Below, one piece after another: positions 60,009 through 64,000 of a stretch of DNA of 64,000 nt. Source of the DNA: Halorubrum aethiopicum (GTDB lineage Archaea; Halobacteriota; Halobacteria; Halobacteriales; Haloferacaceae); contig NZ_LOAJ01000001.1 in NCBI RefSeq assembly GCF_001542905.1, positions 1,674,001-1,738,000 on the forward strand, given 5' to 3'. Numbering within the stretch: position 1 is the first letter of the stretch; each line of letters begins with the position of its first letter. The notes beneath the pieces were generated by a model. That model did not search any database and was not told the DNA's origin. It saw only the letters and a list, made by a program, of their open reading frames with translations. Made by a program: the position numbers and the translations under genes.

Positions 60009-61046
60009 CTACGTAATCCGCTGCAACGCCGTAATCGCCGTCTCCAACTGCTCTCGCAGCTCCGGATCACCCTCATCCACCGTCACCTCACTGTCCTCAA
60101 CAGGGCTCTGCTGTGCAGACTCCCCGGAAACTACGGGGCCAGTCTGACAATCATCCGCAGTCTCGTCACCAACAGCATCCAGTTGCTGTTGGCCATCGGC
60201 ACCAGCACCACTCGGATCAGACTCACTCTCGCCCGCCGCAGGACCCGCCGGGTGCTGCCCACCGTCCCCGCTGCGTCGGAACGCATCGAGGGGGAAATCG
60301 TACGCCATCGCGCGTTTTTCCTTGTGGAACGTGGTCCGACGAGAGACATCGAGCACGTCCATAATCTCCTGCCGGTCACACCCGCGTTCTAATGCCTGCC
60401 TGACTTGCTCGTCTTCAACACGCTGAATCAACGCTTGTGGATCAGACGGGATATGCCCACGCGCTGACTGCTCAACCTGCTCGGTCAAGCCCCATTCACC
60501 GGTGTCAGCGTCCTGATCGACGATCTGCTGGTCCCGAGAGTCGACCATATTGTCAAGCCCCATCAGCAACGCCAGCCGCTCCCGAACCGTGGTGACGGAC
60601 AACTCAGCCGTCAACCCGTTCGAGATCTCACCGGTCCGCGCCGGCCCCTCATCGGCCAAGTACCGCAGGATCTCGATGTCCTGCGGGAGCAGCACACTCT
60701 CATCTTCCTCAGTGATATCCACTGGCAACTCATCCGGCGTACTCTGCTGGTGGAACCAACTATGGCACGACCGACACAGCAACGTTAAATTCTCCAGGTC
60801 GTGCTCGTCTATCCCGTCGGGGTCCCGCTCGATGTGATGGACGTGCAGCGTCGCCAGCCCGCCTTGTTCAGGCCCGCGTCGCCCGCACGCCTGGCACCGA
60901 TGCTGGTACTCCGTCAGGACCTCGTCGCGCGTCGCCGGGTCAACCGTCTCGTGACACTCACGAGGGCTCGTCGTCCCGGCGTCCTTGCCGTCTGTAGTTG
61001 GACTGCTTGATTCATCCGCTCGGGGTCGTGTATCAGCTTCTGCCAT
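60009..61046 (-). CDS. HNH endonuclease domain protein
   Basis: A 345-residue protein. After a short disordered start, the HNH core has EYQHRCQACGRR, then LHVHHIERDPDGIDEHDLENLTLLCRSCHSWFH, including both zinc cysteine pairs and the HH catalytic motif. A winged helix follows (ILRYLADEGPARTGEISNGL), and a long acidic Gly/Ser-rich tail ends it. It is the most downstream gene of the minus-strand cluster with the exonuclease and the RAMP-like protein, and may be the effector nuclease of that system, though such HNH genes also occur alone. Confidence 0.75.
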   Translation of the reverse strand: MAEADTRPRADESSSPTTDGKDAGTTSPRECHETVDPATRDEVLTEYQHRCQACGRRGPEQGGLATLHVHHIERDPDGIDEHDLENLTLLCRSCHSWFHQQSTPDELPVDITEEDESVLLPQDIEILRYLADEGPARTGEISNGLTAELSVTTVRERLALLMGLDNMVDSRDQQIVDQDADTGEWGLTEQVEQSARGHIPSDPQALIQRVEDEQVRQALERGCDRQEIMDVLDVSRRTTFHKEKRAMAYDFPLDAFRRSGDGGQHPAGPAAGESESDPSGAGADGQQQLDAVGDETADDCQTGPVVSGESAQQSPVEDSEVTVDEGDPELREQLETAITALQRIT

Positions 61047-61242
61047 ATTGTCTCTCAGTTCACGTCGTGTTCAGTTGCGACCGATACTGCACTGCGCTGC
61101 CGTGAGTCTTGGTGTATTGCTTCACTCCGCACCGACAGCACCGATGGAACCGCCTGTCGACACCGCGCGTCAGTCCGGCGGCACCACCCAGTCACGCACT
61201 TGCCCAGCCCGCCACGCGGCTACGACTCCCGGCACCTGCATC

Positions 61243-61902
61243 TCAACTCGACCTCGTTGGCGTCAACGATTTCACGTTGAACTCTGCCTTGCTACAGTAC
61301 CGTTCAGCAATCCGGCCGAGCGCCCGCGTCCGCAACACATCCGCCACGTTATGCAGCACGAGCTCCACGAACCGCCCGTCTTCGAAGGCGGTCACCGCCG
61401 CGGCACTGTCCTCGAATGGATCAAGGTCACTATGCGACCCGTCGCCGAGCAGCCTGTACACAGCCGCCAACCCGCGCTGTTCCTCACCGTCAACCATCGT
61501 GTTGAACCGATCCGAAATCACCGGCAACACGTCCGCATACGCCACATCGAACGGCCACGCCATCCTATGCGCCGCGTACCGACTCCGCAGGAACGGCAGA
61601 TCGAACCCGCCACTCCACACCTCACCGTTAAACGCAACGAGCAACGACTCCGCGTCCTGTATCCGGTCACCGATGAACGCCGCGACAGCCGCCAACAGCG
61701 CGGACTCATCAGGGTGTGTCGACACATTCACAAGTGTGTCCGACAGCCGCGCCGACACGCTGGCCTCGACATCGCCGGCGGCCCGCCCAGCGGTCTGGAC
61801 GAACACCCGGACACCCATCGGCATCGCAAACCCGACGACCGTCACCTCATCACTGATGTCAAATCCAGTCGTCTCAATATCGAACGCCACCTGCTCAAGC
61901 AT
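61243..61902 (-). CDS. DEDD-type 3'-5' exonuclease-like protein
   Basis: A 219-residue RNase H-fold protein. FDIETTGF near residue 8 gives the first Asp and Glu of the exonuclease triad; GGFDLPFLRSRY near residue 99 gives the second Asp; and ELVLHNVADVLRTRAL near residue 190 supplies His and the last Asp. It resembles DnaQ/PolB-type exonuclease domains. The ATG at 61902 shares one base with the stop of the RAMP-like gene; a GTG at 61905 would give a GTGA overlap. The two genes are therefore coupled and probably act together. Confidence 0.78.
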   Translation of the reverse strand: MLEQVAFDIETTGFDISDEVTVVGFAMPMGVRVFVQTAGRAAGDVEASVSARLSDTLVNVSTHPDESALLAAVAAFIGDRIQDAESLLVAFNGEVWSGGFDLPFLRSRYAAHRMAWPFDVAYADVLPVISDRFNTMVDGEEQRGLAAVYRLLGDGSHSDLDPFEDSAAAVTAFEDGRFVELVLHNVADVLRTRALGRIAERYCSKAEFNVKSLTPTRSS

Positions 61903-62846
61903 CACACCACCCCCTCACGCTCCGGCACGCGATCACGACCCGCCGGCCGCACCCGCAGCTCGCCGAACCCGAATCGTGCGTGTGTTCCGATTCGCAACAC
62001 GCCGTTTTTCGCCGTCTGTATCGGGTCGTTTCCGGCGTAGCCGACAAGTTGCCCGTGATCGATCGTCGCCAAGTCGTACACCGACTCCCCAGCGAGTCGC
62101 TCCTCGCGGCGACGCAACCGCCGGTCTCGCGTCGGCGCATCACTTCCCATGCCCGTAACCGACGTATCCCACCACCACGGCACCGACTGGGTGTCCGCGT
62201 CCGGGGCCTCACTCTGCAAGACGTACGGCGTCACCAGCTCGATGGAGTACTGGTCGTGCCCCCGCAGCCCATCGAACGACAGCGCGTCGAGATCGACGAC
62301 CTGTGAGTCGACAAGCGATATCTCCCCGAACCCGTAGTTCCGCGCGCCGCCCACCCGGATCCCATCAAGCACGCTCTCATCAAGCGGGAGCACGCCCTCG
62401 CGCTCACTGTGAAGATACGCGTGAACGTACCATGTCACGCGGCGCTTCGAATTCCGCTGGTGTGCCGGCACCCCGAAGAACGACTCCGGCGCGACCGCGA
62501 GCCGCCCGCCGTGCGACTGGACATCCATCGTATTCTGCGCCTCACGCGGCCGGGACGCCTGCAACCATCGCTGCGCCGCATCCCGAAACACGAACAGATC
62601 AGCGTACGACTCGACCGGCGGGAGCGACCCGCCGAGCTTCCCCGCATACCCATCCTGTGAATGCTCATCCGGGTACGACCCGTACTCAGACGGCGTGAAC
62701 ACCCCGTGGCTCACCTGTAACTCGCGTCGCGCCCGGTCGTCGACGTCCGCCGCGATCGCTTGAAACAACGCGTGACCCGACACGTGATACGGCCGCCCCG
62801 CGTACGGCGCTGTCAACTCGAACACGACCTGCTGGATCCGCGTCAT
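61902..62846 (-). CDS. RAMP-superfamily-like protein with two glycine-rich loops (HRAMP candidate)
   Basis: A 314-residue protein. Residues 163-176 read IRVGGARNYGFGEI, and residues 285-296 read RIGTHARFGFGE. Both match the glycine-rich G-x-G-x2-x2-GFG loop of RAMP proteins (Cas5/Cas6/Cas7 families), once in each half. The N terminus begins with a beta strand (MTRIQQVVFEL) and HVSGHALFQAIAAD, in line with a ferredoxin-like fold. It is coupled to the DEDD exonuclease. I believe it is the diverged Cas5- or Cas7-like component of a haloarchaeal HRAMP locus; profile comparison is needed to say which. Confidence 0.65.
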   Translation of the reverse strand: MTRIQQVVFELTAPYAGRPYHVSGHALFQAIAADVDDRARRELQVSHGVFTPSEYGSYPDEHSQDGYAGKLGGSLPPVESYADLFVFRDAAQRWLQASRPREAQNTMDVQSHGGRLAVAPESFFGVPAHQRNSKRRVTWYVHAYLHSEREGVLPLDESVLDGIRVGGARNYGFGEISLVDSQVVDLDALSFDGLRGHDQYSIELVTPYVLQSEAPDADTQSVPWWWDTSVTGMGSDAPTRDRRLRRREERLAGESVYDLATIDHGQLVGYAGNDPIQTAKNGVLRIGTHARFGFGELRVRPAGRDRVPEREGVV

Positions 62847-63312
62847 ACCACACCACACCCCCTTCGGTTCACATCGAGATCATAACACACCGACCCATCC
62901 CGGGTAACTGCATCACCACAGCGAGCCCCCACTCGACTCAACCACCACTCACCACCAGCAGGAGACACAGCCCCACCAAGCACCCGCAACGCACGGCGAA
63001 CCGCTGGTGAGGCGTGTACTACCGGGCGGTCCAACGACCCTCGACCCTGGAGAGCCGGGAACACAACCGGACACGCAGTCCGGCCTGCCGACTCACCGCA
63101 CGACCATACTGCCCGACCCGCACACCACCACACCCCGCCTGTGCAGCTCGACGCGATCGACGATCCCGCGCCCGGGAGTGGGCGGTCCGGGACGCATCGA
63201 CCCTGGAGAGCCGGGAACGCGACCGGACACGCAGTCCGACCCGCCGACTCACCGCACGACCATATCGCATAACCGGAGTCAGCAGCCCGGCCGTCACGAC
63301 CGTGACGACGGG
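62847..63312. other. Non-coding stretch in the RAMP locus
   Basis: About 465 GC-rich bases between the RAMP-like gene and the gene cut by the window edge. No gene is supported on either strand; its one structure is the pair of long direct repeats described separately. Confidence 0.5.
63024..63264 (-). repeat. 85-bp imperfect direct repeat pair with internal hairpin (possible RNA component)
   Basis: Copies at 63024-63108 and 63180-63264 have a period of 156 bases. The last 68 bases of each (63041-63108 and 63197-63264) differ at only four positions; the first nine (GGGCGGTCC) are identical. Each contains a stem, CCGGAC-ACGCA-GTCCGG in copy 1 and one pair shorter in copy 2. The 71-base segment between the copies is unrelated. 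Both lie between genes of the minus-strand locus. Confidence 0.55.
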
Positions 63313-64000
63313 TCACGCATCCACCCCCACCGTGCCGCGCATCTCACCCGCGACAGCATCCTCAATGTACTGTAGCGCCGTCGACCACGACCGGATGCGA
63401 CGGAGCTGTGCGTCGACGTGTCGCCACCATACCGTGTCACGGTCCACCGGCGACCCAGACACGCGACTCCACACATCCGCAAACGACTCAGCCGGCGCCG
63501 GACCAAGCCACGCCGCCGACCCGTCCGGTGACGCCGTCAACCGCATCGTCACCCCATCCAACCACAGGATCGTTCGATGCGGCACCACCACGTCCACGTC
63601 GAGCGCCGCCTGCTGTCTCACCACTCGATCCGCATCTCCTGGCGGTGCGTCCGCTGCTGGTTCAACAACCAAGAACAGGTCATCAAACACGTGGCCCGCC
63701 CGGTACGCATCAAGCAACGCCGACACCAACAACACGTGATACTTCAACGACGAATACGGCAGAAACACCGACTCATTCACCAGCGACGCAGTCTCACTCG
63801 TCAACCACGCCGCGTGCAACTCTTCCGGCGACCCATCAACCAGCGGCGTGATCGAAGTATCCTGTACGGGGACCACCCCCGTTTCGAGTACCGAGCCCGT
63901 GAGCAGCGACAGCCGCGCTGGCGACGCGTGATTCGCCACCGTCTGCTCGGGTTCGCCGTCCGGCCGGCTCAACAACGCCGCATCCCGATCCGCTCCCAGC
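63313..64000 (-). CDS. Unrecognised protein of the RAMP-like locus (5' end beyond window)
   Basis: At least 228 residues. The frame stays open to the window edge, so the start is outside. Visible segments include SLLTGSVLETGVVPVQDTSI, YSSLKYHVLLVSALLDAYRAG, VFDDLFLVVEPAADAP and LRRIRSWSTALQYIEDAV. I recognise no catalytic motif. It is upstream of the RAMP-like and exonuclease genes on the same strand and is probably a further component of that system. Confidence 0.55.
   Translation of the reverse strand, partial: LGADRDAALLSRPDGEPEQTVANHASPARLSLLTGSVLETGVVPVQDTSITPLVDGSPEELHAAWLTSETASLVNESVFLPYSSLKYHVLLVSALLDAYRAGHVFDDLFLVVEPAADAPPGDADRVVRQQAALDVDVVVPHRTILWLDGVTMRLTASPDGSAAWLGPAPAESFADVWSRVSGSPVDRDTVWWRHVDAQLRRIRSWSTALQYIEDAVAGEMRGTVGVDA

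What the first reader, a model, noticed from the sequence alone, without database searches (positions are those of the whole stretch)
60009..64000. Likely HRAMP-type, CRISPR-derived defence locus with its own nucleases
Four minus-strand genes lie together: an unrecognised protein (cut by the edge), a protein with two RAMP glycine loops (IRVGGARNYGFGEI and RIGTHARFGFGE), a coupled DEDD exonuclease and an HNH nuclease. Established knowledge: haloarchaeal HRAMP loci combine very diverged Cas5/Cas7-like proteins, an uncharacterised conserved protein and varied nucleases, with no CRISPR array recognised. The match is by pattern and context; the exact subunit identity is inferred. If right, this is a largely uncharacterised RNA-guided or RNA-sensing system.
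Basis: partly seen in the sequence, partly recalled or inferred. Interest (0 to 1): 0.88.

Follow-up and report, generated by a model that had tools for sequence, protein, structure and literature searches.

The report
HRAMP defence locus with untranslated gap
This is a haloarchaeal gene cluster descended from a type III CRISPR system (HRAMP) that has kept the RNA-binding subunits, lost the CRISPR array and gained two nucleases; it matters because it is widespread and untested, and because its relatives hold conserved non-coding repeats and a jumping-gene branch that I did not find described.

Summary
The window edge cuts an HRAMP operon; the assembly completes it (minus strand): g1 zinc-motif protein, g2 Cas7/Csm3-like RAMP, g3 unrecognised protein, g4 Cas5/Cmr3-like double RAMP, g5 DEDD exonuclease, g6 HNH nuclease. 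The g4 model matches Cas6 and Csm4 folds. The g3 model's best PDB hits are all Csm1/Cas10, each weak alone, so g3 may be a shrunken large subunit. Relatives of g4 occur in 85 of 294 Halobacteria genomes. The window genome has no Cas1 and no type I Cas7.

New here: a 454-nt non-coding gap between g3 and g4 holds an 85-nt repeat in two copies. In relatives the same gap holds two other features: same-strand repeats matching Orc1/Cdc6 origin boxes (64 found, 0.2 expected), and a covarying hairpin with loop CGUGGUGG. A near-invariant element, NTTGAAGCGATACnnCA, lies upstream of g6 in nearly every locus with the HNH gene. A sister clade lacks nucleases and rides a DDE transposon.

Identity is about 95% sure. 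Mechanism, an RNA-binding effector that delivers nucleases to invaders, is about 45%; neither the guide RNA nor the role of the gap is shown.

The parts
63313..64000 (-). g3, 'uncharacterised' HRAMP protein (297 aa, continues to 64206 in the assembly); candidate reduced Cas10/Csm1-like large subunit
   Evidence: AF2 pLDDT 83.7, pTM 0.85; top 13 Foldseek PDB hits all Csm1/Cas10 (best E 0.24, prob up to 0.47); no sequence-level hit
62859..63312 (-). non-coding gap between g3 and g4
   Evidence: mismatches in gaps are flat over codon phase (146/122/106) while g4 is strongly phased (422/137/82)
63180..63264 (-). 85-nt repeat, copy 1 (first in transcription order)
   Evidence: 2 copies, 87% identical, spacing 156; one copy fewer in the near-identical locus of Halopenitus persicus
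63024..63108 (-). 85-nt repeat, copy 2
   Evidence: related units in Halorubrum loci; consensus fold with weak covariation
61902..62858 (-). g4, Cas5/Cmr3-like protein with two RAMP glycine loops (start likely ATG at 62846)
61243..61905 (-). g5, DEDD-type 3'-5' exonuclease
   Evidence: PF13482 E 2.4e-5; PADLOC DEDDh E 3e-4
61110..61128 (-). conserved element upstream of g6, GGAGTGAAGCAATACACCA (consensus GGATTGAAGCGATACnnCA)
60009..61046 (-). g6, HNH nuclease with helix-turn-helix part
   Evidence: (PF01844 E 1.5e-9)

Best explanation
A nuclease-armed HRAMP locus: a type III-derived effector (Cas10-like g3, Csm3-like g2, Cmr3-like g4, small zinc-motif g1) that binds an RNA and delivers a DEDD exonuclease and an HNH nuclease to foreign nucleic acid. 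Identity as HRAMP is shown (about 0.95). That the proteins form one complex, that the complex carries an RNA, and that it acts on invaders is inferred from the families (about 0.45 together). The non-coding stretch upstream of g4 is either the source of that RNA or a control region of the g4-g5-g6 half of the operon; I could not decide which.
For: Gene content and order kept over many genera. g2 = Csm3-like (best member E 1.8e-6; Pfam RAMPs E 0.0089). g4 = Cmr3-like in 32 of 32 members (best E 6.9e-9), predicted fold matching Cas6 and Csm4 (E 1.8e-4 to 8.7e-4, prob 0.94-1.0). g3 model like Csm1/Cas10. HNH and DEDD motifs read as intact; in other loci the HNH gene is replaced by a gene whose motif reads as PD-(D/E)xK, as expected of exchangeable effectors. 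The window genome has no Cas1 and no PF05107 Cas7, so the system cannot lean on a resident type I system there. The gap holds repeated, structured elements in many relatives.
Against: No guide RNA is shown, and no gap feature is shared by all loci: 20 of 52 non-redundant loci have gaps of 100 nt or less, 10 of them with g3 and g4 overlapping, so the gap cannot be the only RNA source. The Cas10 likeness of g3 rests on individually non-significant structure hits. No expression, binding or defence data. The g4 fold matches have low TM-scores (0.32-0.45).
Confidence: 0.55

Rival explanations
1. Replication-linked control: the gap repeats are DNA sites for Orc1/Cdc6 initiators. Initiator binding keeps the g4-DEDD-HNH half of the operon low; an invading replicon with many origin boxes draws the initiator away and releases the nucleases.
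For: In 20 of 32 non-redundant loci with a long gap there are 2-5 copies of CACTGGAAACGGGGTGTG: 64 on the sense strand in all, 0 on the other, 0.2 expected. Outside HRAMP the same sequence forms clusters; 9 of 10 clusters examined hold an Orc1/Cdc6 gene, i.e. look like replication origins (origin boxes with G-string: PMC3528665). The array lies directly upstream of g4.
Against: The window locus and its Halorubrum relatives have no such repeats. All copies point one way, unlike origins. Spacings are nearly all multiples of 3 (38 of 42), which DNA binding does not explain. Many HRAMP loci have no gap.
Confidence: 0.15
2. crRNA-like fixed guide: the element upstream of g6 is a lone CRISPR-repeat remnant whose ATTGAAGC part is a crRNA handle and whose GATACnnCA part is a fixed seed, loaded by HRAMP (or by a type I-B effector, as in CreTA).
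For: Core invariant at nucleotide level over 22 divergent loci. It ends in the same TTGAAGC as haloarchaeal CRISPR repeats, seen in two real arrays. It is tied to the HNH gene: in nearly all g6 loci, in no g7 locus.
Against: No hairpin or second repeat near it. 22 of 36 HRAMP genomes lack PF05107 Cas7, so a resident type I-B effector is not needed. No target was found. The strict link to one gene fits a promoter or operator of g6 as well.
Confidence: 0.12
3. HRAMP is not a defence system but a mobile-element or regulatory module; defence is a label by ancestry.
For: A monophyletic sister branch (100/100 support) carries only g2-g3-g4 and ends at a transposon end with 4-bp target duplications.
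Against: The window's branch has two nucleases, exchangeable between HNH and PD-(D/E)xK-like types, and is not inside that transposon.
Confidence: 0.15

Closest known systems
HRAMP (haloarchaeal RAMP; PMC8730458, PMC12669027)
   Same: Diverged Cas5 and Cas7 homologues, uncharacterised conserved protein, HNH nuclease, no array, Halobacteria
   Different: Adds a DEDD exonuclease, a structured non-coding gap, and a Cas10-like reading of the 'uncharacterised' protein
Type III CRISPR-Cas effector (Csm/Cmr)
   Same: Csm3-like g2, Cmr3-like g4, Csm1/Cas10-like fold of g3
   Different: No GGDD polymerase motif seen in g3, no array, no Cas1, separate nucleases
Haloarchaeal replication origins (ORB arrays; PMC3528665)
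   Same: Repeat sequence in the gap of 20 relatives matches the ORB core at 16-17 of 18 positions
   Different: One orientation only, no orc1/cdc6 gene in the HRAMP loci searched, not recognisable in the window locus
CreTA / ectopic CRISPR repeats (PMC8501985, PMC9458426; abstracts only)
   Same: Lone repeat-like element beside an effector gene
   Different: No second repeat, no type I effector needed, no target identified
CRISPR-associated transposons
   Same: The sister branch pairs nuclease-less RAMP genes with a transposase
   Different: DDE_Tnp_1 (IS4-type) transposase, ordinary NTAN target sites, no own-element match in the flanks

Membership tests
HRAMP | diverged Cas7 homologue | tested here: met
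   Csm3, best member E 1.8e-6; PF03787 E 0.0089, below its cut-off
HRAMP | diverged Cas5 homologue | tested here: met
   Cmr3 in 32 of 32; Cas6/Csm4 fold
HRAMP | additional nuclease, HNH or PD-(D/E)xK | tested here: met
   HNH; PD-(D/E)xK-like motif read by eye in relatives; no Pfam hit
HRAMP | uncharacterised conserved protein | tested here: met
   g3, no family hit, conserved in 27 aligned loci
HRAMP | no CRISPR array or adaptation genes | tested here: met
   no array in the region; no Cas1 in the genome
HRAMP | found in Halobacteria | tested here: met
Type III CRISPR-Cas | Cas10 with polymerase palm | tested here: not met
   g3 only 297 aa, no sequence hit; fold likeness only
Type III CRISPR-Cas | CRISPR array and crRNA | tested here: not met
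   (region of the operon)
CreTA-like crRNA | one or two CRISPR-repeat copies with a guide matching a local promoter | tested here: inconclusive
   handle-like element present; no second repeat, target not identified
RNA-guided transposon (for the sister branch only) | insertion directed by a guide | tested here: not met
   NTAN target preference, no own-element match in the right-hand flanks

The most novel reading that the evidence does not exclude
HRAMP is a defence system wired to replication initiation: the spacer before its nuclease half carries arrays of Orc1/Cdc6 origin boxes (or RNAs made from them), so that a foreign replicon's origins, rather than a stored sequence, trigger or steer the nucleases.
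Probability: 0.12. Interest if true: 0.9.

Novelty: new member of a known kind. Interest (0 to 1): 0.58.

Why it matters
HRAMP occurs in about 3 of 10 Halobacteria genomes sampled, yet no function has been tested as far as the literature I could search shows. The work makes three open points testable: whether the 'uncharacterised' subunit is a reduced Cas10, whether an array-less CRISPR derivative uses RNA from its own operon, and why origin-box repeats lie in many of these operons. It also shows a nuclease-free branch carried by transposons, present in the model strain Halobacterium salinarum NRC-1.

Tried and rejected
1) Gap repeats as a CRISPR-like guide array: first favoured. The short repeat proved to be an origin box found at Orc1/Cdc6 loci, so the guide-array reading was dropped for that repeat. 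2) Gap as coding: repeat spacing is mostly a multiple of 3, but no frame is consistently open and mismatches show no codon phase. 3) Pairing between the g6-upstream element (GATACACCAC) and the gap repeat (GGGGTGTGTC): 9 of 10 bases by eye; no covariation between loci seen by eye; dropped. 4) Similarity of that element to the start of g1: explained by coding; dropped. 5) Type I-B Cascade as user of the element: lacking in 22 of 36 genomes. 6) Guided insertion of the sister transposon: no support. 7) Gap DNA in phages or plasmids: no match. 8) Rfam: no match. 9) Cas10 profile search in 294 genomes: none above cut-off; the weak hits listed cover only the N-terminal end of the profile and look like unrelated proteins. 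10) My first regular expression for the repeat was wrong and was corrected.

Full report
1. What is there. The window lies at G000:C1:1674001-1738000. Reading on past the edge (L002) shows the rest of the operon: g1 (164 aa, with cysteine motifs by eye; no family hit), g2 (307 aa) and the full g3 (297 aa). Order: g1, g2, g3, gap, g4, g5, g6. g1-g2, g2-g3 and g4-g5 overlap. Further upstream lies an unrelated-looking island with two TGT/DpdA-like proteins and an HSP90-type ATPase.

2. What the proteins are. Single-sequence searches are weak, as expected for HRAMP. With relatives the picture is clear: 13 of 26 g2 proteins hit Csm3, best E over all Csm3 models 1.8e-6, and 32 of 32 g4 proteins hit Cmr3, best E 6.9e-9. 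The predicted structure of g4 (pTM 0.79) matches Cas6 and Csm4 with probability 0.94-1.0, though with low TM-scores, so the two-domain RAMP fold is supported but Cas5-like versus Cas6-like is not settled by fold alone. g3 has no sequence relatives outside HRAMP in the libraries searched. Its predicted structure (pTM 0.85) gives Csm1/Cas10 chains as all of the top 13 hits and most of the 48 listed; the best single E-value is 0.24. I read this as a likely reduced Cas10; the motif YRHDVHK...GAD in g3 could be what is left of an HD domain (inference). g5 and g6 keep their catalytic motifs by eye (FDIETTG; HVHHI...N...H).

3. How common. g4 relatives are in 85 of 294 Halobacteria genomes and 41 of 78 genera. 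Named relatives include Halopenitus persicus (98%) and many Halorubrum (85-87%), which also suggests that the window comes from Halorubrum or a near relative. No match among phages; 27 plasmids, all below 60% identity.

4. Two branches. The g4 tree splits with full support into branch A (the window's: with g5 and/or a nuclease) and branch B. In A the nuclease is HNH (g6) or, in its place, g7, whose motif PDCxxxG..NRWIEFV looks like PD-(D/E)xK (no Pfam hit). In B, g2-g3-g4 are tightly coupled, have no recognised nuclease, and end 50-100 nt from a sequence GAATAAAGAAATCGTATT..CAACAACTG; beyond it nothing is shared between genomes. An inverted copy is found at the other end in several loci; four pairs have clean 4-bp duplications: TTAT (6.3 kb, Haloferax sulfurifontis), ATAT (5.8 kb) and GTAA (3.6 kb) (both Halopiger djelfimassiliensis), TTAA (3.8 kb, Halovenus MAG). 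The first two contain a transposase of the DDE_Tnp_1 kind. The same ends occur in 87 of 294 genomes, many away from HRAMP. Target sites prefer NTAN, and right flanks do not match their own element more than other elements, so I see no sign of guided insertion.

5. The gap. In branch A the g3-g4 distance ranges from overlap to 613 nt. Close pairs show that it is not translated: mismatches 146/122/106 over the three phases (sorted) against 422/137/82 in g4. (a) In 20 of 32 non-redundant loci with long gaps there are 2-5 copies of CACTGGAAACGGGGTGTG, all on the sense strand. This is the core of the Orc1/Cdc6 origin box: elsewhere in the genomes it clusters, and 9 of 10 clusters examined hold an Orc1/Cdc6 homologue (box with G-string described in PMC3528665). 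Spacings are multiples of 3 in 38 of 42 cases; I have no explanation. (b) In about ten loci the gap holds hairpins with the loop CGTGGTGG and stems that differ in sequence but stay paired: 81.8% of cells paired against 53.8 in shuffles, covariation 0.771 against 0.268, slid controls 0.11-0.23. A model of it finds mainly HRAMP gaps; one further whole-genome hit pair is the same locus split by assembly. Inverted repeats of this kind could act as RNA or as DNA. (c) The window and its Halorubrum relatives have neither; they have 1-3 copies of a 153-156-nt unit, one fewer in Halopenitus persicus. Its predicted fold has only weak covariation.

6. Element before g6. GGATTGAAGCGATACnnCA lies 67-250 nt before g6 in all but two lineages with g6, and in no locus with g7. 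TGAAGC and several other positions are invariant in 22 divergent loci, with no hairpin around. In 294 genomes other exact matches are scattered; two are real CRISPR arrays, because ..TTGAAGC is how haloarchaeal repeats end. It may be a crRNA-like handle or simply a g6 control site.

7. Mechanism. Shown: gene set, RAMP fold of g4, conserved elements. Inferred: assembly into a Csm-like complex, a bound RNA, delivery of DEDD and HNH to foreign nucleic acid. The nuclease choice varies while g2-g4 stay, which fits a recognition core with exchangeable effectors. The window genome lacks Cas1 and PF05107 Cas7, so HRAMP stands alone there.

8. Known or new. As a locus it is a member of HRAMP (PMC8730458, PMC12669027); the original 2019 description was not in the library, so what it says about gaps or transposons is unchecked. 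I found no paper linking HRAMP with origin boxes, hairpins, a Cas10-like subunit or transposons, but the library is partial.

Noticed in passing
L002:8383-13725 (just past the window, about window+58999): Island with two TGT/DpdA-like proteins, an HSP90-type ATPase and a DUF5591-bearing protein; looks like a 7-deazaguanine DNA-modification type defence island.
   Followed up: no
L201, L208, L209, L218 and about 25 further loci: Nuclease-less HRAMP genes at the end of IS4-type transposons with 4-bp duplications; decayed and multiple copies in some genomes (G129 has 7 pieces).
   Followed up: partly
L259 (NC_002608.1, pNRC200 of Halobacterium salinarum NRC-1, VNG_RS11520): A model archaeon carries the transposon-borne branch, annotated as hypothetical protein: a ready test strain.
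   Followed up: partly
gaps of L038-L068 and L170-L192: Origin-box-like repeats spaced by multiples of 3 (24, 33, 36, 45, 48, 51...) although the stretch shows no sign of translation.
   Followed up: partly
g2-g3 junction of several loci (e.g. L010, L012, L016, L025, L026): Acidic N-terminal extension of g3 with a repeated peptide motif (such as ELQPVESxLxxAQ), possibly a docking motif.
   Followed up: no
L198: Contig titled Elusimicrobia MAG carries a branch-B HRAMP trio like those of Halobacteria; probably a misbinned contig.
   Followed up: no
G215:C11 end and G215:C14 start (L281, L053): Assembly broken inside or beside the 33-nt repeat array of an HRAMP gap.
   Followed up: yes
G180:C48:230617: One perfect CGTGGTGG-loop hairpin with an 11-bp stem with no HRAMP gene in the 12 kb fetched around it.
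   Followed up: partly
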